From an uncultured Nitrosospira sp. (GTDB lineage: Bacteria; Nitrospirota; Nitrospiria; Nitrospirales; Nitrospiraceae): a stretch of 64,000 bases of DNA. Below the pieces are notes generated by a model. The model was not told the origin of the DNA. It saw only the letters and a program-made list of their open reading frames with translations, and did not search any database. Below are positions 34,445 through 52,359 of the stretch, piece after piece. Position numbers and translations under genes: made by a program. Positions within the stretch are counted from its first letter, which is position 1. Every line of letters begins with the position of its first letter. The stretch covers positions 1-64,000 of the forward strand of contig CAADGK010000015.1 in NCBI GenBank assembly GCA_900696515.1, in the 5' to 3' direction.

Positions 34445-34720
34445 ATGTCGAGGATCGAACGCATGACCATTACCATGCCGGCTGATATGGCGGCGCTTGT
34501 CAAAGCTGCCGTTGATGGTGGTGACTACGCCTCGACCAGTGAGGTGGTGCGCGAAGCCCTGCGCGAATGGAAGCTCCGACGTGGGGTCCAAGAGCGAGAA
34601 CTCGCCGCACTGAAAGCGGATATCGACAAGGGGCTGGCGGATCTTGCTGCTGGGCGCGTCACCGACTTTAATCTCAAAACAATCATCGCGCGCGGGAGGA
34701 AGCTATTAGCCAAACCCTGA
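34445..34720 (+). CDS. parD: ParD-like ribbon-helix-helix antitoxin
   Basis: Antitoxin of a type II module. The N-terminal RHH domain reads MTITMPADMAALVKAAVDGG, then YASTSEVVREALREWKLRR, as in the CC2985/ParD group; the C-terminal half (Asp/Ala/Leu rich) should wrap the toxin. 91 residues. AAGGAGG lies 7 nt before the ATG. Its TGA overlaps the inferred CTG start of the toxin gene. Confidence 0.9.
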   Translation: MSRIERMTITMPADMAALVKAAVDGGDYASTSEVVREALREWKLRRGVQERELAALKADIDKGLADLAAGRVTDFNLKTIIARGRKLLAKP

Positions 34721-35083: not shown

Positions 35084-35202
35084 GTGCAGGGCCAATCAAC
35101 AAGTGATCCCGTTCGACAGAGGAAACGCGGGGCGCTTGCGTTTTCTGCATGACGGGTCTACACAAGATCCTGCCTGATTATCAGACGCGTCGTGGAGGCG
35201 TC

Positions 35203-35499
35203 ATGCCCGCAGAAATGAGCAAGGTCGGCAAACGGGGGGCGGTGGTAATTCCGGCCGCGCTGCGGCGCCGTTTCGGCATCACCGAGGGCTCGCTCGTGAT
35301 GGTCGAGGAACGGGCCGACGGTGTCCTGATTCGACCGGCCGCCGCTTTTCCCCTGGAGATGTACACCCCGGAACGGCAGGCAGAGTTCCTCCTCTCCAAT
35401 GCGGTCGGCCCGAAGGACTATGCGCGAGCCAAAGAGGCCGTGCGGAAGATGGGCCTCGACGTCCGAAAGATCCCTCATGACAAGCCGGTTCGTTCCTAA
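35203..35499 (+). CDS. AbrB/MazE-family antitoxin
   Basis: A 98-residue protein: swapped-hairpin DNA-binding domain MSKVGKRGAVVIPAALRRRF then GSLVMVEERADGVLIRPA, followed by a helical tail that would bind the toxin. ATG 35203 is preceded by TGGAGG; an upstream ATG at 35149 adds 18 non-conserved residues. Its usual PIN-domain toxin partner starts 3 bp later but is cut short (35503-35574), so this is probably an orphan antitoxin. Confidence 0.88.
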   Translation: MPAEMSKVGKRGAVVIPAALRRRFGITEGSLVMVEERADGVLIRPAAAFPLEMYTPERQAEFLLSNAVGPKDYARAKEAVRKMGLDVRKIPHDKPVRS

Positions 35500-36335: not shown

Positions 36336-39300
36336 ATGAGTGCTGACTTCTTCTCTAAACCCATTCTGAATTCGCCCTATGCATATCCTTCTCGCCACTG
36401 GGAACTTGATGAACAGGGGCAACCGACCCAGAAAATTATAGAAATCCGTCGCCCCGCCGAATTTATCACACCGATTCCAAAGCCCAAGAAACGAAAATCC
36501 TCAGAGAAACAGTCCTCGATTGTCTTCGATGAAGGGAAGGGCCTCTCAACACAAGAACAGCAGTATGATGTCACGGCTATCATCAACGGCGTGCGGGACC
36601 AAGTAGAAGCATGGCGAAGGTTACTGAATCCCAACGACTGGCAGGTGACTCCAGAAACCGCGCGGCTGCTCCAACACTGGCGCCATCACAAATTCAACAG
36701 CACGAGACCATTTTTCTGCCAAGTCGAGGCGGCTGAAACGGCCATTTGGTTAACGGAGGTGGCTTCGAGTACCAAGGCAGGCAAGGGGTTTCTTGAGCAC
36801 CTTGCGAACGCCAACAACGACGCCAATCCAGGACTGTCGAGACTGGCGTTGAAGTTGGCCACAGGCGCTGGCAAGACCACCGTCATGGCCATGCTAATCG
36901 CGTGGCAGACGATCAACGCCGTGCGACGCCCCAACAGCAAGAAATTCACTCGCGGTTTTCTCGTTGTGACGCCTGGCCTCACGATCAAAGACCGCCTGCG
37001 TGTCCTCCAGCCGAATGATCTAGACAGCTACTATGCCAGCCGCGAGCTAGTGCCCAATGACATGCTTGGCGATGTGACTCACGCGAAGATCATCATCACC
37101 AATTTCCACTCGTTCAAATTGCGAGAACGAATCGAACTCTCAAAGGGTGGTCGGTCGTTCCTTCAAGGGCGAGGCGAAGAGTTATTGACACTCGAAACCG
37201 ATGGCCAGATGCTTCAAAGAGTGATGCCTGATTTGATGGGCATGAAGAACATTCTCGTCCTCAATGACGAGGCGCACCATTGCTACCGAGAGAAGCCGGG
37301 AGCAAAAATCGATGATGAAGACCTTAAAGGGGATGAGAAGAAAGAGGCCGAGAAGAATAGTGAGGCGGCTCGCCTCTGGATTTCTGGCCTCGAGATCGTC
37401 ACTCGAAAACTTGGTGTCACGCAGGTTGTCGATCTATCGGCCACACCATTCTTTCTGAGTGGCTCGGGCTACGCCGAGGGCACGCTCTTTCCCTGGACTA
37501 TGAGCGATTTCTCCCTCATGGATGCGATCGAATGCGGCATTGTGAAATTGCCGCGCGTGCCAGTGGCGGACAATATCCCAGGGGAAGACATGCCCAAGTT
37601 TCGCAACCTCTGGGAGCATATCCGGACAAGGATGCCGAAGAAGGGGCGTGGAAAGGCTGCAACCCTCGATCCTCTTAGCTTGCCAGTCGAGTTGCAGACC
37701 GCCCTTGAAGCGCTCTACGGCCACTATCAAAAGACCTTCGACCTCTGGAAAGAGAGCGGCATGCGGGTGCCGCCCTGTTTTATCGTGGTCTGCAACAATA
37801 CGTCTACATCTAAGTTGGTCTACGACTATATCTCAGGCTTTCAGCGCGAGAACGAAGATGGATCGAGTACGTTAGAGAACGGCCGACTTGAGCTATTTAG
37901 GAACTTTGATGAACACGGGAACCCTCTTCCTCGACCGAACACACTTCTCATTGATAGTGAGCAGCTCGAATCAGGTGAAGCCTTGGATGACAATTTCCGT
38001 GGAATGGCTGCCAATGAAATCGAGCAATTCCGGCGAGAGATTATCGAGCGCACAGGCGATCAACGGCAAGCGGAGGGGCTCACCGACCAAGACTTGCTAC
38101 GGGAGGTCATGAATACAGTCGGCAAGCACGGGCGGCTAGGCGAGTCGATCCGCTGCGTGGTGTCTGTATCCATGCTGACCGAAGGATGGGATGCCAACAC
38201 GGTCACGCATGTACTGGGCGTGCGAGCCTTTGGCACACAACTGCTGTGCGAACAGGTCATCGGCCGAGCCTTGCGGCGTGAATCCTACGATTTGAACAAT
38301 GAGGGTCTCTTTGATGTCAGATACGCGGATGTCCTTGGCATCCCGTTCGATTTCACGGCAAAGCCGGTGATCGCTCCGCCTCAGCCGCCAAGAGAAACCG
38401 TCCATGTCAAAGCGATGCGTCCCGAACGGGATGCGCTCGAAATCACCTTTCCTCGTGTCGAAGGCTATCGCGTCGAGCTGCCCGAAGAACGGCTCACTGC
38501 CAAATTCAATGAGGATTCCATTTTGGAGCTGACACCAGATCTCGTTGGCCCTTCCAAAACGAAGAACGCCGGGATTATCGGAGAAGCTGTTGACTTGGAC
38601 TTGGAACACTTGGAGGACATGCGGCCCTCGACGGTGCTCTTCCATGTGGCCAAGCGTCTGCTTTATACCAAGTGGCGTGATCCGGGAGAAGAGCCCAAGC
38701 TCCACCTGTTCGGCCAGCTCAAACGCATTACGAAAGAATGGATCGATACCTGCCTCGTCTGCAAAGGCGGCACCTATCCGGCACAACTCATGTACCAAGA
38801 ATTGGCCGACATGGCCTGTGAACGCATCACTGCCGGCATTACACGAGCGCTGGTGGGAAAGCGGCCCATTAAGGCGCTACTCGATGCCTACAATCCGACT
38901 GGTTCAACAAGGCACGTGAATTTTAATACATCCAGACGGGATCGCTGGGAAACCGATGCCAAGCGGTCTCACATCAACTGGGTTATTCTCGACAGCGATT
39001 GGGAAGGTGAGTTCTGCCGCGTGGCCGAAGCTCATCCCAAGGTCAGAGCCTATGTCAAAAATCACAATCTCGGTCTGGAAGTGCCGTACCGGTATGGATC
39101 GGAGACCAGGCGGTATATCCCGGACTTCATCGTCCTGGTGGATGACGGTCATGGGGACCAAGACCTGCTCCACCTGATTGTGGAGATCAAAGGCTACCGG
39201 CGCGAGGATGCGAAGGAAAAGAAGGCCACCATGGAAAACTATTGGGTGCCTGGGGTGAACAACCTTGGTACGTATGGTCGCTGGGCCTTTGCCGAGTTCA

Positions 39301-39404
39301 CCGAGATCTACCAGATCGCGACTGACTTTGAAGCAAAGGTCGCGAGTGAATTTAACAAGATGATCGAGACGGCGGCAGTCTCGCCCGTGGTCGAAGGGAA
39401 GTAG
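36336..39404 (+). CDS. Type III-like restriction enzyme, helicase-nuclease subunit (BPTD_3080 family)
   Basis: The 1022-residue protein has an N-terminal family segment (PILNSPYAYPSRHWELDEQG), a superfamily 2 helicase core with Walker A ATGAGKTT at 175-182, DEAH at 311-314, and motifs V-VI in SMLTEGWD and EQVIGRALRRE. Near the C-terminus, IPDFIVLV (about 927) and IVEIKGY (about 949) give a PD-(D/E)xK nuclease. It thus resembles the Res subunit of type III systems: ATP-driven translocation or switching and cleavage of unmodified DNA. It starts the six-gene cluster; the methyltransferase follows after 2 bp. Complete, no frameshift. Confidence 0.88.
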   Translation: MSADFFSKPILNSPYAYPSRHWELDEQGQPTQKIIEIRRPAEFITPIPKPKKRKSSEKQSSIVFDEGKGLSTQEQQYDVTAIINGVRDQVEAWRRLLNPNDWQVTPETARLLQHWRHHKFNSTRPFFCQVEAAETAIWLTEVASSTKAGKGFLEHLANANNDANPGLSRLALKLATGAGKTTVMAMLIAWQTINAVRRPNSKKFTRGFLVVTPGLTIKDRLRVLQPNDLDSYYASRELVPNDMLGDVTHAKIIITNFHSFKLRERIELSKGGRSFLQGRGEELLTLETDGQMLQRVMPDLMGMKNILVLNDEAHHCYREKPGAKIDDEDLKGDEKKEAEKNSEAARLWISGLEIVTRKLGVTQVVDLSATPFFLSGSGYAEGTLFPWTMSDFSLMDAIECGIVKLPRVPVADNIPGEDMPKFRNLWEHIRTRMPKKGRGKAATLDPLSLPVELQTALEALYGHYQKTFDLWKESGMRVPPCFIVVCNNTSTSKLVYDYISGFQRENEDGSSTLENGRLELFRNFDEHGNPLPRPNTLLIDSEQLESGEALDDNFRGMAANEIEQFRREIIERTGDQRQAEGLTDQDLLREVMNTVGKHGRLGESIRCVVSVSMLTEGWDANTVTHVLGVRAFGTQLLCEQVIGRALRRESYDLNNEGLFDVRYADVLGIPFDFTAKPVIAPPQPPRETVHVKAMRPERDALEITFPRVEGYRVELPEERLTAKFNEDSILELTPDLVGPSKTKNAGIIGEAVDLDLEHLEDMRPSTVLFHVAKRLLYTKWRDPGEEPKLHLFGQLKRITKEWIDTCLVCKGGTYPAQLMYQELADMACERITAGITRALVGKRPIKALLDAYNPTGSTRHVNFNTSRRDRWETDAKRSHINWVILDSDWEGEFCRVAEAHPKVRAYVKNHNLGLEVPYRYGSETRRYIPDFIVLVDDGHGDQDLLHLIVEIKGYRREDAKEKKATMENYWVPGVNNLGTYGRWAFAEFTEIYQIATDFEAKVASEFNKMIETAAVSPVVEGK

Positions 39405-39406
39405 GC

Positions 39407-42307
39407 ATGGCCAAGAAGCAAGCGACTACCAAGACCGTTGAAGCGCTGAAGCACGACGAGGCGAAGCGAAAGAATATTCCCACGGCGGAATATCAGTCCA
39501 TCTTGCAAAAAGAAGAACAAAGCCCTGTCCGGATCGCCTACGAACGGCGCAATCGTGATTTGGACCCGCAACTGGTCTGGCGTGGGAAGGATGAGCAAGA
39601 TTGGTCCGATCTCGTCGTACACGCCTCGCCGCTCTACATCCAAGAGAAGGTCCACCCGAAGGCGCTGATTGACGACTTGTTGCGTGAAACCAAGGAGCGT
39701 GAGTACGAAACCGGGCAACTCACACCAGATCTCTTCGCTGACTTCAACGGCATCCCCAAGGGAGTAGACAAGACCGAGTTCTATCAGCATGACCAGAACT
39801 GGTCGAATCGCATGATTCTCGGCGATTCACTCCAAGTCATGGCCAGCCTGGCCGAGCGTGAGGGGCTGCGAGGCAAGGTGCAATGCATCTACTTCGACCC
39901 ACCCTACGGCATCAAATTCAATAGCAACTTCCAGTGGAGCACCACCAGCCGTGATGTGAAAGATGGAAACGCTGATCACATCACCCGCGAGCCGGAACAA
40001 GTGAAGGCCTTTCGCGATACATGGCGCGATGGCATTCATAGTTACCTGACCTATCTCCGCGACCGCCTCACGGTCGCCCGCGATCTCCTCACCGATTCCG
40101 GCTCCATCTTCGTGCAGATCGGCGATGAAAATGTCCACCGCGTTCGAGCAGTGATGGATGAGGTGTTTGGGGAAAGCAATTTTGCAGCACTTATATCTGT
40201 CAACAAAACCAGTGGGCTTGGCTCAACCTTGTTGGCTGGCACACAAGATTTTGTTCTCTGGTATTCCAAGAATAAAGTCTCGACGAAGTTCAGACGACTA
40301 TACAGTGACAAGATGGATCGTGCTGCATCAGACAGTCACTACCAACTCGATGAGGAGGGACGACTATTCACCCTAAGTGATCTCAGTGGGCAGAATAATA
40401 ATGTCGCGTCATGTATTTATACCTTTCGGTACCAAGGAACGGATTTTCCTACACCAACGGGTCGGCAGTGGAAAACAACTTTACTGGGACTGACCAGACT
40501 AGCCCAGGCAGGTCGAGTCCAAATATCCGGACGCTCCGTTCGGTACAAGAGGTTTGCGGCTGACCTGCCCGTTCTTCCCGTCACGGATGTTTGGAGCGAC
40601 GTTGGAGGAAGTGTTCAAAGTCGTAATGACCCAAAGATCTATGTTGTGCAGACAGGGACCACAGTAATTCAACGCTGTGTCTTGATGAGCACTGATCCCG
40701 GTGACCTTGTGCTCGATCCCACCTGTGGTTCAGGTACTACCGCTACCGTAGCTGAACAATGGGGGCGTAGGTGGATCACCATTGATACCTCACGGGTAGC
40801 GCTGGCACTGGCCCGTGCCCGAATAATGGGGGCGCGCTATCCTTATTATTTCCTCGCCGATTCTCGTGAAGGCCAACTCAAGGAGGCCGAAGCCAGCCGT
40901 ACGGTCCCGAGCTCCCAGCCAGTGTGTGGGAACATTCGCCACGGTTTCGTTTATGATCGCGTCCCACAAATTACTCTGCAGTCTTTCTCGAAGAACTCTG
41001 AGATCGATGTTATTTGGGACAAGTGGAAGGCGAAGCTGGAACTCTTGCGAGAGTCGTTGAACAGGGAGCTCGAGAAGACTTGGCAGGAATGGGAGGTTCC
41101 ACGAGAGGCCGAAGACCCATGGGATACCAAGACACGGGAGATGTTCTATGAACTCCAGGCCGAGCAGAAACGTGGAGATAAAGACAGCGCAGCTAGCATC
41201 GCCGAATGGCTCCAGGGAATTAACCGAAACCTGAAACGAAACTACACGCTCAAGACTCTACCTGAAAAGCCTGCCGATGCATGGCCCGAAGCACCTGCCA
41301 AATTGCATTCTGACTGGTGGCAGGCGCGCATCGCCCGGCAGCAGGAAATCGACAAGTCTATTGCTGCCAAGGCCGAGTTTGAATACCTCTACGACAAACC
41401 CTACGAGGATAAAAAGAAGGTCCGCGTGGCTGGCCCGTTTACCGTCGAGAGCCTTTCGCCCCACCGTGTGCTGGGCGTGGATGAAAATGATGAGTTGATC
41501 GATACGTCCAAAGAAAGCAGCCCAGAGTACGGGGCGAAACAAAGCTTCGCGCAGATGATCCTGGAGAATCTCAAGACTGCGGGGGTTCAGCAGGCGCATA
41601 AGGCAGACAAGGTAGACTTTACATCCCTGATACCGTGGCCTGGTGATCTCGTGTGTGCGGAAGGTCGCTACCTGGAAGGGGACAGGGAAAAGCGCGCCGC
41701 CATCTTCATCGGACCTGAATTTGGTACCGTCACTCGTCCAGATCTAGTGGAAGCCGCTAGAGAGGCTGGCGACGCCGGATTCGACGTGCTCATCGCATGT
41801 GCCTTCAATTACGAAGCCCATACCACTGAGTTCAGCAAGCTGGGACGCATCCCCGTGCTCAAGGCCAGGATGAATGCCGACCTACACATGTCCGACGACC
41901 TCAAGAACACCGGCAAGGGTAACCTCTTCGTCATCTTTGGCGAGCCGGATATCGATATCCTCAAAGAGAAAGACGGCAAGGTAAGGGTGAAGGTCAAAGG
42001 GGTGGACGTGTTCAAACCCCAAACCGGTGAAGTCATCAGTGATGGTGCCGATGGCATTGCCTGCTGGTTTATCGACACGGACTACAACGAAGAAAGCTTC
42101 TTCGTCCGCCACGCCTATTTCCTCGGCGCGACCGATCCCTACAGTGCGCTCAAAACAACCCTCAAATCCGAGATCGACCCCGAAGCCTGGGCCACCCTCA
42201 ACAGCGACACATCCCGTGCTTTTGAGAAACCTAAGTCAGGGCGAATCGCCGTGAAAGTCATCAACCACTTGGGTGATGAAGTGATGAAGGTGTTTAGAGT
42301 TAACTAG
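39407..42307 (+). CDS. DNA methyltransferase of the type III-like system
   Basis: A 966-residue amino-methyltransferase. The catalytic motif DPPYGIKFNSNF is at about 164, and the AdoMet motif LDPTCGSGTTATVAE at about 434, the beta-class order used by type III Mod enzymes and many N6-adenine methylases. The long C-terminal half (from about 520) has charged helical and unknown regions that may bind DNA or the Res subunit. The region between the motifs would hold the target-recognition domain. The start is 2 bp after the res stop, so they are co-translated. Base specificity and recognition site are unknown. Confidence 0.88.
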   Translation: MAKKQATTKTVEALKHDEAKRKNIPTAEYQSILQKEEQSPVRIAYERRNRDLDPQLVWRGKDEQDWSDLVVHASPLYIQEKVHPKALIDDLLRETKEREYETGQLTPDLFADFNGIPKGVDKTEFYQHDQNWSNRMILGDSLQVMASLAEREGLRGKVQCIYFDPPYGIKFNSNFQWSTTSRDVKDGNADHITREPEQVKAFRDTWRDGIHSYLTYLRDRLTVARDLLTDSGSIFVQIGDENVHRVRAVMDEVFGESNFAALISVNKTSGLGSTLLAGTQDFVLWYSKNKVSTKFRRLYSDKMDRAASDSHYQLDEEGRLFTLSDLSGQNNNVASCIYTFRYQGTDFPTPTGRQWKTTLLGLTRLAQAGRVQISGRSVRYKRFAADLPVLPVTDVWSDVGGSVQSRNDPKIYVVQTGTTVIQRCVLMSTDPGDLVLDPTCGSGTTATVAEQWGRRWITIDTSRVALALARARIMGARYPYYFLADSREGQLKEAEASRTVPSSQPVCGNIRHGFVYDRVPQITLQSFSKNSEIDVIWDKWKAKLELLRESLNRELEKTWQEWEVPREAEDPWDTKTREMFYELQAEQKRGDKDSAASIAEWLQGINRNLKRNYTLKTLPEKPADAWPEAPAKLHSDWWQARIARQQEIDKSIAAKAEFEYLYDKPYEDKKKVRVAGPFTVESLSPHRVLGVDENDELIDTSKESSPEYGAKQSFAQMILENLKTAGVQQAHKADKVDFTSLIPWPGDLVCAEGRYLEGDREKRAAIFIGPEFGTVTRPDLVEAAREAGDAGFDVLIACAFNYEAHTTEFSKLGRIPVLKARMNADLHMSDDLKNTGKGNLFVIFGEPDIDILKEKDGKVRVKVKGVDVFKPQTGEVISDGADGIACWFIDTDYNEESFFVRHAYFLGATDPYSALKTTLKSEIDPEAWATLNSDTSRAFEKPKSGRIAVKVINHLGDEVMKVFRVN

Positions 42308-42342
42308 TCATGAGTGCGAAACCATATGAGAAGACCTAGCAA

Positions 42343-43374
42343 ATGAAGGAATCAAGACCTAAACCAAGCGAACTTCTCAGTTCAGATAAACCAGTTGGTT
42401 CGGTTGCATCTTTCCCAGCTCTCGCATTGGAGCAAAATGAGCAAAAGTTTTACTTTGCCACAATTCCTAAAGAAGACATTTTCCCTTTCTGCTATGTAGC
42501 TGGTAGAGATGAGGATCCCAAGGATGGCTTCCAACGCACCCTTGATCGCAATCGTGCTCGGGACATCGCTCGTTACCTGGATGATTCAGTAGGATCCATT
42601 CCAACAAATGTGGTCCTTTCCGCCCAGCCAGAGGCTGAAGTCGAATACAACTCAAAGTCCAAGCTAATTAAATTCAAGCGCCAGCCAAAAGCCTTTTTGG
42701 TACTCGACGGGCAGCATCGACTGTATGGGTATGGTTTAACCAACAAGAAACATAGAATTCCGGTCTCAATCTATGTCGGGCTCAATAAGAAGGAAGAGGT
42801 TTCGCTCTTCATCGACATAAATACAACTCAGCGGGGAGTTCCGGCCGCACTCCTCTTAGACATTAAGCATCTGGCTGAAAAAGAGTCGCTGATTGAGGCG
42901 GAACTCAGAAAACTGTTTGATTATTTATCCACTGAGCCAGATTCTCCAGTTCATGGACTCTTAAGCCCTTCGCAATCTGCACGGGGGAAAATAGCCCGGC
43001 CTACGTTTAATCGTGCCGTCGAACCAGCTTTAAAGAGCCAGGTGATGGACCAATTGCCGATCGCCAAGCGATTCCTACTTTTCAAGAACTATCTCAAAGC
43101 AGTGGAAGGTTGCCTCAGTGACCCTCGACTTCTGTCACTTTCTGCATACTTTGAATCTTTCTGCGCACTGTTTGATGAAGTTCTTCGAATCGCTCGTGAG
43201 CGCTTCTCGAACTATAAGCCTGAATCACTCGCGAAAGTGTTGACGCCCTTAAAATCAATTGATCTTTCCAAAATTTCCAGTGGCGGAAAAGTCAAGATAT
43301 CCAAGGCGAACATCATCCCGATTCTCAAAGAGACGCTTAATGGTCAAATAGTGGTGGACGAGAACATGATATGA
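42343..43374 (+). CDS. DGQHR-domain (DndB-like) protein
   Basis: A 343-residue protein with DGQHRLYGYG at 122-131 and the preceding FQRTLDRNRARDIARYLD, both typical of the DGQHR/DndB family. DndB represses dnd genes in phosphorothioate systems; other members occur in defence islands with unknown roles. No dndC, dndD, dndE or ssp gene is present here, so it has been recruited to a methylation-type locus. It follows the methyltransferase by 35 bp and overlaps the next gene by ATGA. DNA binding is inferred from the family only. Confidence 0.82.
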   Translation: MKESRPKPSELLSSDKPVGSVASFPALALEQNEQKFYFATIPKEDIFPFCYVAGRDEDPKDGFQRTLDRNRARDIARYLDDSVGSIPTNVVLSAQPEAEVEYNSKSKLIKFKRQPKAFLVLDGQHRLYGYGLTNKKHRIPVSIYVGLNKKEEVSLFIDINTTQRGVPAALLLDIKHLAEKESLIEAELRKLFDYLSTEPDSPVHGLLSPSQSARGKIARPTFNRAVEPALKSQVMDQLPIAKRFLLFKNYLKAVEGCLSDPRLLSLSAYFESFCALFDEVLRIARERFSNYKPESLAKVLTPLKSIDLSKISSGGKVKISKANIIPILKETLNGQIVVDENMI

Positions 43375-44381
43375 TTCCGCGGGGGACAATTTATAGCGAA
43401 TTGCGTTCCCAAATGGTCAGAAATTTCCCTGAGGGTTCGAAGGCGCCGTACGGGGATTTCACCAGTGTTGGCGAATGGCTTTCGACAGGCTCCCTCGTTG
43501 TAAAGACCTCTACAAAGTGCAAAGTTACGTTTGAAGCTCCGGTGGTCGAATTTGGATCGAGACTTCTAACGGAAATCGAGAATCTTCTTAATCACTGCTT
43601 TGAGCACCTGCAGGAGCTCGGCTGCACAGCTGAGGACAAGAGGGTCAGAAGTGAGGCTTGGAATACAGTTACAGCGTATTACTTCGCGTTTTTCTCCGCA
43701 TCAGCCGTGTTGCGTCTGCTGGGACGGCCAGTTGTATTTCTGCACCGTAATCAGCTTCAGGCCTTCACAAAGATCTTGGGGAGTGGAATCGCACCAAGCC
43801 AGGGAGCCTTTGAGATTGTCCTTGTCAGCTCGATTTCAGCGACCCACGCAGAATTTAGTCTGCATCAAACGAACAAGGTTCATGAAGCTACTTGGCAACG
43901 ACTCTTTGGGATTTTCGATGACTTGCATCGAAAGCTCAGTGCCAAACTAGATGCAAAGGAACTACTCTTTTACGCTGCCCTATCTACCAAGGTCCTCTTC
44001 TCAGAGTATGTCAACTTCCAGTGGCCTTCTTCTGTACGTAATCGGGCAAATTATCGCCCCGGATATGCGTACAAGCTGCAAACAGCCCGTAGCCCACACT
44101 TCAAGATATTCAGCGAATGGGCACAGGCGGAATCACAGGAAACAAGCAATCTCCTTGATGCAGCGCTGAGAGCATGCAGTTCTGATGTCGCAAATTTTGG
44201 AAACCATGTTCAACTCATGACGGCAGTTGGAACCTCTCTTTTCCTTCTAGCTCGTGAGCTTTACTCCGACCTACTAACGCGGAAGAGATTGGATAAACGG
44301 TGGGAAAACCACCGTCGCTCATATGTGAACAAAATGTGCTTTGTGCGAGATGATCACAAGAGGCTTGCCAGGACATTTTAG
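43371..44381 (+). CDS. Unknown protein coupled to the DGQHR gene
   Basis: A 336-residue, mostly helical soluble protein that I do not recognise. A segment at about 96-120 (SEAWNTVTAYYFAFFSASAV, then LRLLGRP) recalls the YYxxFF..A..LL..G helix of HEPN or YaaC-like proteins, but no convincing Rx4-6H catalytic motif is seen. Its ATG overlaps the DGQHR stop (ATGA), so the two products probably work together. The start is well placed; A+T content is higher than in the flanking backbone, suggesting transfer. Confidence 0.7.
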   Translation: MIPRGTIYSELRSQMVRNFPEGSKAPYGDFTSVGEWLSTGSLVVKTSTKCKVTFEAPVVEFGSRLLTEIENLLNHCFEHLQELGCTAEDKRVRSEAWNTVTAYYFAFFSASAVLRLLGRPVVFLHRNQLQAFTKILGSGIAPSQGAFEIVLVSSISATHAEFSLHQTNKVHEATWQRLFGIFDDLHRKLSAKLDAKELLFYAALSTKVLFSEYVNFQWPSSVRNRANYRPGYAYKLQTARSPHFKIFSEWAQAESQETSNLLDAALRACSSDVANFGNHVQLMTAVGTSLFLLARELYSDLLTRKRLDKRWENHRRSYVNKMCFVRDDHKRLARTF

Positions 44382-44408
44382 AGGTTTGCTGCTATTACGG
44401 CTCTGACA

Positions 44409-46481
44409 ATGGAATTTCGTATTGCCGACACCTTCGCCGATAGCCTCTCCCGCCTGACTGGTGATGAGCAGAAGGCCGTGAAGACGACGGCTTTTGATCT
44501 CCAGCTCAACCCCGCCAATCCCAGTTTCAGCTTTCATAAGCTTGACAAAGCCAAGGACAAGAACTTTTGGTCGGTTCGTGTCAACAACGATATCCGGTTG
44601 ATCGTCCACCGGACGTCAGGGAGTTTGCTCCTCTGCTACGTCGATCACCACGATAAGGCCTATGATTGGGCTGAGCGCCGTAAGCTCGAAACGCATCCAA
44701 AGACCGGTGCAGCGCAGTTCGTCGAGATTCGCGAGAAGGTTCAGGAGATTGTCGTCCCCAAATATGTTGAAACGTCTAAGGCTCTGGCAAAGCAGCAGAG
44801 CCTGTTTGCTGACATGCCTGATGCTGAGTTGCTGAGTTTTGGTGTACCCCAAGAGTGGCTTTCTGATGTGCGACAGGCTACCGAGGATACGCTGTTGGCT
44901 TTAGCCGATCATTTGCCTGGGGAGGCCGCAGAGGCCCTTCTGGAACTAGCCACTGGTGGGAAACCCCGCCTGCCTCAGCCTATAGCCGCGTCGGCAAATC
45001 CCTTTGATCACCCAGACGCACAACGCCGATTCCGGGTGATGGCGAATGTCGAAGAGTTGGAGCGTGCCCTTGAGTTCCCCTGGGAGAAATGGACGGTCTT
45101 TCTACACCCAGAACAGAGGCAATGGGTGGAGCGGGACTACAACGGCCCAGCACGAGTGTCCGGCTCGGCAGGGACGGGAAAGACGATCGTGGCGCTGCAT
45201 CGCGCTACGTTCCTGGCGCGAACTAACCCTGATGCGAGAGTATTGCTAGCCACCTTTTCTGACACGCTCGCCCATGCGCTCCACACCAAGTTGCGCCGCT
45301 TGATCGGTAGTGAGCCACGCCTTGGAGAACGCATCGATGTCCACTCGCTGAATACGCTTGGAATACGCCTCCACAAGTCCTTGATTGGACCGGCCAAACT
45401 GGCAAGCCGGAATGATATCCGAAATAGCCTGAATTCGGCCTCCCAATCTGTCGGTGGTCATAAGTTCAGTCTGTCCTTCCTCCTCAGTGAGTGGGAACAG
45501 GTTGTGGATGCCTGGCAGTTGGAAAATTGGGAGGCCTATCGCGATGTCGCTCGCTTGGGACGGAAGACGAGGCTGCCTGAAGCCCAACGGGCTGTCTTAT
45601 GGTCGATCTTTGAACAATGTCGTGCCGGACTGAAGAAGCAAGGGCTCACCACACAAGCCGCGGTATTTACCAACCTCGCCTCCGAGTTGGCCACGACGAA
45701 CAAGCAGCCTTTTGACTTTGCTGTGGTGGATGAGGCGCAAGACATCGGTATTCCACAATTACGGTTCTTTGCTGCCTTGGGTGGAAATCGGTTGAATGCT
45801 CTCTTCTTCGCCGGCGACCTTGGCCAGCGGATCTTTCAACAGCCGTTCTCATGGAAGGCGCTAGGTGTTGATATACGAGGGCGATCACGTACGCTGCGAG
45901 TCAATTACCGAACATCCCATCAGATTCGCATGCAAGCTGATCGGCTGTTGGGGCCACAGGTCGCTGATGTTGATGGCAATGTTGATGATCGCCGAGATAC
46001 CGTGTCGATCTTCAATGGCCCGCCGCCTGTCGTTCAGGTTCACAGCAACGAACAGGAAGAGATCAAAGCAGTCGCGGCTTGGATATTAGAACACGCGAAG
46101 GCAGGAGTAGCGCCCCACGAGTTTGGGGTGTTTGTCCGTTCCGAGGCGCAGCTGCCCCGTGCACGTGCGGCAGTTGAGCAGGCGGGAATTCCTTTCAAGG
46201 TTCTCGATGAGCACGTCGAAACCACCAGCGGGTTTGCCTCAACTAGCACCATGCACCTTGCTAAAGGGTTGGAGTTCCGTGCCGTGGTCGTGATGGCCTG
46301 TGACGATGAAATCATTCCTCTACAAGAACGAATCGAAACTGTTGGTGACGACGCAGACCTGCAGGAGGTGTATGACACCGAGCGGCATCTGCTCTACGTT
46401 GCCTGCACCCGAGCGCGGGACTATTTGCTGGTAACCAGTGTGGAGCCTGCATCAGAATTCTTGGATGATCTGAAGCTATAA
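44409..46481 (+). CDS. RelE-like domain fused to a UvrD-type superfamily 1 helicase
   Basis: A 690-residue fusion. Residues 1-95 have a RelE/HigB-type fold signature (FWSVRVNNDIRLIVHR, then CYVDHHDKAYDWAERR). After a linker, the helicase carries Walker A GSAGTGKT at 252-259, DEAQDIGIPQ at 441-450, the LRVNYRTSHQIR motif, HLAKGLEF and the final YVACTRARDYL (motif VI). No separate nuclease domain is seen. RelE-fold toxins cleave mRNA on ribosomes; here the domain could instead be a DNA or RNA sensor. It starts 27 bp after the unknown gene, on the same strand, and is likely part of the same operon. Confidence 0.85.
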   Translation: MEFRIADTFADSLSRLTGDEQKAVKTTAFDLQLNPANPSFSFHKLDKAKDKNFWSVRVNNDIRLIVHRTSGSLLLCYVDHHDKAYDWAERRKLETHPKTGAAQFVEIREKVQEIVVPKYVETSKALAKQQSLFADMPDAELLSFGVPQEWLSDVRQATEDTLLALADHLPGEAAEALLELATGGKPRLPQPIAASANPFDHPDAQRRFRVMANVEELERALEFPWEKWTVFLHPEQRQWVERDYNGPARVSGSAGTGKTIVALHRATFLARTNPDARVLLATFSDTLAHALHTKLRRLIGSEPRLGERIDVHSLNTLGIRLHKSLIGPAKLASRNDIRNSLNSASQSVGGHKFSLSFLLSEWEQVVDAWQLENWEAYRDVARLGRKTRLPEAQRAVLWSIFEQCRAGLKKQGLTTQAAVFTNLASELATTNKQPFDFAVVDEAQDIGIPQLRFFAALGGNRLNALFFAGDLGQRIFQQPFSWKALGVDIRGRSRTLRVNYRTSHQIRMQADRLLGPQVADVDGNVDDRRDTVSIFNGPPPVVQVHSNEQEEIKAVAAWILEHAKAGVAPHEFGVFVRSEAQLPRARAAVEQAGIPFKVLDEHVETTSGFASTSTMHLAKGLEFRAVVVMACDDEIIPLQERIETVGDDADLQEVYDTERHLLYVACTRARDYLLVTSVEPASEFLDDLKL

Positions 46482-52283: not shown

Positions 52284-52359
52284 TGGTGGCGGTGACCCGG
52301 ATTGAACGGGTGACCCGCGGCTTATGAGTCCGCTGCTCTGCCAACTGAGCTACACCGCC
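52284..52359 (-). tRNA. tRNA-Met (CAT anticodon)
   Basis: 76-nt cloverleaf on the minus strand: acceptor GGCGGTG/CACCGCC, D arm GCTC...GAGC, anticodon loop CTCATAA, T arm ACCCG-TTCAATC-CGGGT, and an encoded CCA. The fully paired acceptor rules out the initiator. An elongator Met is likely; a tRNA-Ile2 read through lysidine cannot be excluded. The top anticodon pair next to the loop is A-G (A31/G39), a mismatch where A-T would be usual. The 3' end is the probable integration site for the island. Confidence 0.95.

What the first reader, a model, noticed from the sequence alone, without database searches (positions are those of the whole stretch)
42343..44381. DndB-like DGQHR protein coupled by ATGA to an unknown 336-residue protein, without dnd genes
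The DGQHR motif (122-126) is intact but no dnd, dpt or ssp gene is present. The unknown partner begins within its stop codon, so they are likely made in fixed ratio and interact. A DndB family member serving a methylation-based system would be a new role.
Basis: partly seen in the sequence, partly recalled or inferred. Interest (0 to 1): 0.55.

Follow-up and report, generated by a model that had tools for sequence, protein, structure and literature searches.

The report
Candidate DGQHR two-gene defence cassette
A DGQHR gene and its unnamed partner gene travel together as a small mobile cassette, seen inside phage defence sites and inside several different restriction-modification operons; it is probably a built-in second line of defence against viruses, but nobody has tested it here.

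Summary
In detail: an intact DGQHR motif (42706-42720), an ATGA overlap (43371-43374), an unnamed 336-residue partner, and no dndC in the genome. The pair is a portable two-gene cassette, not DndB serving one methylation system. Partner-only searches found the partner in 9 further genomes, always behind a DGQHR gene. Of 107 loci fetched by DGQHR, 94 carry it. Genes are at most 29 nt apart and co-inherited (r 0.84). In 10 of 27 viral loci it lies between gpA and gpQ of P2-like phages, a published defence hotspot. It also occurs in an inovirus, on plasmids, and beside several unrelated methylation/restriction genes (NotI, HsdS, C5, D12, DUF1156, BPTD_3080). Here it sits inside a BPTD_3080 operon whose relatives lack it. 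DGQHR proteins have a ParB-CTPase fold; the partner is helical, with invariant W97, Y103, Y104, H171, W175, R223, Y228, resembling HEPN proteins with an alternative histidine, but unproven. Best reading: NTP-dependent switch plus toxic effector, an abortive or back-up defence. The partner family has no name in Pfam, NCBIfam or PADLOC. A DGQHR-HEPN fusion and ParB-HEPN-methylase operons are already described, so this is a new variant of a known kind.

The parts
36336..39404 (+). BPTD_3080 family restriction endonuclease (host operon)
   Evidence: NF046055 1396.5 bits, cut-off 800
39407..42307 (+). large type III-like DNA methyltransferase (host operon)
   Evidence: PDLC03632 1403.8 bits; PF01555 120.6 bits
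42343..43374 (+). DGQHR protein, gene 1 of the cassette
   Evidence: TIGR03187 125.2 bits, cut-off 58.85; PF14072 42.3, cut-off 29.1
42706..42720 (+). DGQHR motif, residues 122-126
   Evidence: read directly; invariant
43371..43374 (+). ATGA start-stop overlap
   Evidence: read directly
43371..44381 (+). 336-residue partner, gene 2, candidate effector; invariant W97 Y103 Y104 H171 W175 R223 Y228
   Evidence: model pLDDT 88.6, pTM 0.91
44409..46481 (+). UvrD-like helicase with RelE/HigB-like N-terminus (host operon)
   Evidence: PF13361, PF00580, weak PF05015; accompanies BPTD_3080 on plasmids

Best explanation
The DGQHR gene and its partner are a mobile two-gene defence cassette. Shown here: fixed pairing, tight coupling, co-inheritance, a ParB-CTPase fold for the DGQHR N-terminal half of a family member, residence in the P2 defence hotspot and inside or beside unrelated RM operons. 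Inferred: the DGQHR protein is an NTP-dependent switch that senses infection (DNA state, nucleotides, or failure of the neighbouring RM system) and restrains or releases the partner; the partner is the toxic effector, most likely a divergent HEPN-like RNase whose R223/N224 and H171 form the active site, stopping growth of the infected cell. Inside the Nitrospira BPTD_3080 operon it would be a second line behind restriction, as PrrC is behind its type I system.
For: Partner-only searches: 9 non-own, non-seed genomes, all with DGQHR just upstream, one cut by a contig end (checked in 65, 73, 79). 94 of 107 DGQHR-fetched loci have the partner. Spacing <=29 nt in 92 of 92, 47 abut or overlap, distance correlation 0.84 against a shuffle maximum of 0.11 in 88 pairs. 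gpA upstream and gpQ downstream in 10 of 27 viral loci (Pfam), the hotspot of PMC9122126 (passages). Repressor-adjacent in inovirus PfAC19 (HMM). RM neighbours of many kinds. ParB/Noc/KorB fold, Z 8.8-7.4; a DndB-like protein binds ATP and GTP (PMC12704722, passages). Partner never alone while DGQHR sometimes is, as expected of toxin and restrainer. Best structural match of the partner is HepS, Z 5.2. A DGQHR protein on pNL1 ends in a weak Swt1-like HEPN match, E 7.9e-4.
Against: No phage or toxicity data exist here. HEPN is unproven: Z 5.2 is below the level that means much for helical proteins, Foldseek gave nothing at E<=0.001, hhalign against a set of PF05168-derived proteins gave probability 0.3%, and the window protein lacks the histidine of Rx4-6H. 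The fused model shows no confident interface (pTM 0.63). Many chromosomal copies lie among ordinary genes. 7 of 107 DGQHR loci really lack the partner.
Confidence: 0.5

Rival explanations
1. The pair is a toxin-antitoxin or addiction module that stabilises plasmids, phages and RM operons, with no direct role against phages.
For: Two small overlapping genes, on plasmids and phages; the partner is never seen without DGQHR.
Against: Sits in the P2 defence hotspot and near RM genes; DGQHR proteins are larger than usual antitoxins (general knowledge).
Confidence: 0.2
2. The DGQHR protein is a DndB-like transcriptional regulator of the neighbouring RM genes, the partner its co-regulator.
For: DndB represses its own operon through TACGN10CGTA (PMC4507180, passages); the pair lies inside an RM operon here.
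Against: Most copies have no common neighbour to regulate; the operator is not enriched in the window (10 found, 9.6 expected with one mismatch) and absent from 120 bp upstream of 90 relatives; no shared palindrome spacing stands out there.
Confidence: 0.12
3. The pair are accessory subunits of restriction or modification that work with whatever methyltransferase is next door.
For: Overlapping or near-abutting methyltransferase or specificity genes in L013, L041, L081, L015, L031 and NotI operons.
Against: P2-like phage copies and stand-alone copies have no methyltransferase beside them; the window's nearest relative L011 lacks one of this kind.
Confidence: 0.13

Closest known systems
DndB (TIGR03233) and other DGQHR proteins
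   Same: DGQHR motif, ParB/Srx superfamily
   Different: Scores 15.6 against a cut-off of 328; no dndC in the genome; different partner
ParB-HEPN-DNA methylase operons and ParB-HEPN fusion Saro_3948 (Anantharaman 2013, PMC3710099, passages)
   Same: A ParB-fold protein coupled to a HEPN protein near methylase genes; the pNL1 DGQHR protein here has a weak Swt1-HEPN tail
   Different: Our partner matches no HEPN model; separate overlapping gene; own conserved pattern. That the pNL1 protein is Saro_3948 is inferred
PrrC / EcoprrI anticodon nuclease
   Same: An NTP-regulated toxin nested inside an RM operon as a second line (PMC3710099, passages)
   Different: PrrC is one ABC-ATPase-HEPN protein; here two genes and a ParB-type fold; nuclease not shown
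SspE / DndI / GmrSD (DUF262)
   Same: ParB-like NTPase domain coupled to an effector; DGQQR motif in GmrS (PMC4619093 and PMC11662687, passages)
   Different: Effector there is HNH in the same protein or a partner; here an unnamed helical protein
HepS (Gifsy-1 prophage, PDB 9oik; title only)
   Same: Top structural match of the partner, Z 5.2, rmsd 5.6, 133 aligned
   Different: 10% identity; match too weak to assign the fold

Membership tests
DGQHR domain (TIGR03187) | score above curated cut-off | tested here: met
   125.2 against 58.85 bits
DndB equivalog (TIGR03233) | score above curated cut-off | tested here: not met
   15.6 against 328 bits
DndB equivalog (TIGR03233) | dnd genes in the genome | tested here: not met
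   TIGR03183 dndC: no match in the own genome; other dnd genes not searched genome-wide
DpdB (NF041060) | score above curated cut-off | tested here: not met
   47 against 300 bits
DGQHR_dnd_1 (TIGR04172) | score above curated cut-off | tested here: not met
   60.4 against 450 bits
ParB-CTPase fold | fold of the N-terminal half | tested here: met
   residues 19-155 of relative L067 match ParB, Noc, KorB, PadC, Z 8.8-7.4; tested on L067, not on the window protein
ParB-CTPase fold | NTP binding | not testable with these tools
   needs purified protein
HEPN superfamily | Rx4-6H motif | tested here: not met
   window has R223-N-x3-Y228 and P230; 41 of 81 members have H at 230 (Rx6H); invariant H171 lies upstream
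HEPN superfamily | profile similarity | tested here: inconclusive
   hhalign 0.3% with PF05168 proteins; PF01934 and PF05168 each hit 1 of 81 members at E 0.09-0.13
HEPN superfamily | helical-bundle fold | tested here: inconclusive
   HepS Z 5.2
anti-phage defence system | protects cells from phage | not testable with these tools
   needs plaque assays

The most novel reading that the evidence does not exclude
A widespread, unnamed defence system in which a ParB-type NTP switch gates a new, highly divergent HEPN-like RNase encoded by an overlapping gene, and which repeatedly inserts itself into unrelated restriction-modification operons as a guard that fires when restriction fails.
Probability: 0.3. 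Interest if true: 0.78.

Novelty: new variant of a known kind. Interest (0 to 1): 0.58.

Why it matters
DGQHR proteins have been read as parts of DNA-sulfur systems. Here one belongs to a portable cassette with an unnamed partner family of about 320 residues, present in many phyla, in a phage defence hotspot and nested in several kinds of RM operon. If the switch-effector reading holds, it gives the ParB-CTPase fold a role as a gate of phage defence, adds a new effector family, and makes testable the idea that RM operons recruit back-up suicide modules.

Tried and rejected
Rejected: DndB orthology; dedicated regulator of this RM operon; chance ORF.

Led nowhere: sequence search of solved structures with partner and DGQHR profiles; Foldseek of the partner against PDB and viral models, nothing at E<=0.001; Pfam and PHROGs scans of 81 partner members, scattered mostly chance-level hits; hhalign against HEPN proteins (its set was picked by mutual similarity from ORFs at the match sites and was not curated further); PF07751 search, no match in 39 genomes; no match of a P2-type cassette in E. 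coli genomes; no plasmid match by tblastn with the window's partner, although profile relatives are there. Foldseek of the fused model listed RnlA and RNase L at E near 1, which means little.

The near/far count of RM genes (17 of 226 genes under 2 kb, 0 of 223 over 4 kb) is biased: the 12 search seeds were picked from RM genes mostly found near cassettes (two are the window's own, one, MmeI, lies at 3.4 kb), and the near count includes seeds themselves. The less biased check is PADLOC at E<=1e-10: 266 models hit by 123 near genes, many of them methyltransferase models (the best-populated ones hit by 3 proteins), against 17 models, none a methyltransferase or restriction enzyme model, by 106 far genes. 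Genes over 900 residues were dropped from both sets (4 of 127 and 3 of 109), and only genome loci with a called partner gene were used.

Full report
What is there. The window is from a Nitrospira genome (nearest named relatives of the pair are Nitrospira). Five genes run on the + strand: BPTD_3080 restriction endonuclease, a 966-residue type III-like methyltransferase, the DGQHR gene, the 336-residue partner, and a UvrD-like helicase with a RelE/HigB-like start. DGQHR is intact at residues 122-126 and the partner starts within the stop codon as ATGA. The pair has 47.4% G+C against 54.0% for the endonuclease-methyltransferase part and 55.4% for the helicase.

The pair is inserted in a known operon. 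The same endonuclease, methyltransferase and helicase occur on plasmids without it: on a Pseudomonas avellanae plasmid the methyltransferase and helicase genes abut, and on Gemmobacter, Sphingomonas and Rhizobium plasmids other small genes lie in that gap (homology). A second Nitrospira genome (L012) has the full arrangement with the pair, while the nearest relative of the window's pair, L011 (89-90% identical DGQHR), has no match to the methyltransferase, endonuclease or helicase in its 9.4 kb contig, which ends about 0.5 kb after the partner.

Fixed pairing. Searching whole genomes with the partner alone or its profile gave, besides the own genome and genomes already known from seeds, nine genomes (G007, G027, G055, G146, G285, G471, G795, G886, G904) out of 59, 295, 369, 369 (largely the same genomes as the search before) and 296 searched. 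At least G007 and G027 are genomes also reached by the DGQHR search, and G146 looks like L012's genome. In all nine a DGQHR gene lies just upstream; in G886 only its tail, because the contig starts there. The cassette is rare: 5 of 295 Nitrospirota genomes including the own, 1 of 368 besides the centre, 3 of 295 besides the centre. In reverse, of 107 loci fetched by the DGQHR alignment (80 from genomes, the best of 161 relatives, and 27 viral), 94 hold the partner by profile and 13 do not: 3 end at a contig edge (L028, L062, L099), 3 are remote (L115-L117), and 7 lack it (five in Methylocystis/Methylosinus relatives, one Bacillus, one viral contig). Over all 132 sequences then held, some overlapping or duplicate, 111 had the partner and all 111 had DGQHR. 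In 92 loci with called genes the spacing never exceeds 29 nt, 47 abut or overlap, 27 by exactly 4 nt; distances of the two proteins correlate at 0.84 over 88 pairs, shuffles reaching 0.11. The partner evolves faster (mean identity 21% against 42%).

Where it lives. In 10 of 27 viral loci, eight groups at 90% identity, gpA lies upstream and gpQ downstream (families checked on L106). Rousset et al. describe exactly this gap as a hotspot of anti-phage systems (PMC9122126, passages). In the Pseudomonas inovirus PfAC19 the pair follows the repressor gene. In an Acinetobacter phage a repressor, an RsrI-type methyltransferase, a DGQHR gene and a 294-residue gene follow each other; that last gene only weakly resembles the partner (E 0.007 in a 10-sequence search), keeping HxxxW and RNxxQY by eye. 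Plasmid copies: beside a methyltransferase and NotI-type endonuclease in Acinetobacter, between umuD and umuC in Providencia, and in Burkholderia glumae, where an annotated DNA methyltransferase lies about 7.4 kb off. Among genome loci, RM neighbours are C5 methyltransferases (L014, L015, L031), N6 methyltransferases with NotI (L067, L068, L079), an N6 methyltransferase (L030), DUF1156 (L013, overlapping), a D12 methyltransferase (L041, overlapping), HsdS (L081, 20 nt) and MmeI (L066, 3.4 kb). On the DGQHR tree of 98 rows the RM-associated rows that I labelled fall in several separate places. Many other copies lie among ordinary genes.

What the proteins are. For a fused model of relative L067 (pLDDT 92.7) DGQHR residues 19-155 match ParB, Noc, PadC and KorB at Z 8.8 to 7.4, the top hits. 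That DGQHR corresponds to the ParB GERR box is recalled, not tested. Kaljevic et al. report that a DndB-like ParB-fold protein binds ATP and GTP (PMC12704722, abstract and passages). The partner model of the window protein is confident (pLDDT 88.6, pTM 0.91): mostly helical with a few beta strands. Over 81 members W97, Y103, Y104, H171, W175, R223 and Y228 are invariant, R115 is R in 77, N224 is N in 76, S220 is S in 73. [quoted passage not shown] H171 and R223-N224 fit that description; 41 of 81 members also have a histidine at 230, an Rx6H. The best structural match is the prophage protein HepS, but weakly, and sequence profiles do not confirm HEPN. The same review lists ParB-HEPN fusions (Saro_3948) and HEPN genes in operons with ParB and DNA methylase. 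The pNL1 DGQHR protein, probably that fusion, matched Swt1-like HEPN at E 7.9e-4, below the curated cut-off, and does not match the partner profile.

Mechanism. Shown: pairing, coupling, mobility, ParB fold in a relative. Inferred: an NTP switch restrains and releases a toxic effector. That the partner never occurs alone while DGQHR sometimes does is what a toxin and its restrainer would give; it is not proof. A complex is not shown: the fused model's pTM of 0.63 means the two halves are not placed confidently against each other, and the fusion has only a short linker, so this says little either way.

Literature. The word DGQHR occurs in 6 papers of the held library; I read passages of two of these, neither of which describes this pair, and saw only listings of the other four. 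Searches with ParB, DndB, two-gene and phage-defence terms and passages of PMC10853773 and PMC11662687 did not show it either. Supplements, subscription papers and preprints were not searched, so the pair may be in print elsewhere.

Noticed in passing
36336-46481; L125-L129, L131: BPTD_3080 endonuclease, large methyltransferase and RelE-UvrD helicase recur together on plasmids, with differing small genes in the gaps: the operon may have cargo slots.
   Followed up: partly
L168:3275-5584: pNL1 DGQHR protein of 769 residues with an N-terminal extension that looks nuclease-like by eye and a weak Swt1-like HEPN tail.
   Followed up: partly
L166:1084-5051: A BglII-type RM system with a DGQHR gene behind a hydrophobic 207-residue protein on an Acinetobacter plasmid.
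   Followed up: no
L165:3229-5140; L167:3791-5484: Other DGQHR genes overlap or abut HNH or GIY-YIG nuclease genes: DGQHR proteins may be general switches with exchangeable effectors.
   Followed up: no
L003:6811-11307: The pair lies between umuD and umuC on a Providencia plasmid.
   Followed up: no
L078, L080, L085, L038, L090: Methylocystis/Methylosinus-type DGQHR genes of 366-394 residues without the partner.
   Followed up: partly
L074:9971-11904: Both cassette genes appear interrupted in Kosakonia arachidis.
   Followed up: no
34445-34720, 35149-35499, 52284-52359: Two small antitoxin-like ORFs (by eye) upstream of the operon and a tRNA-Met downstream; possible island borders.
   Followed up: no
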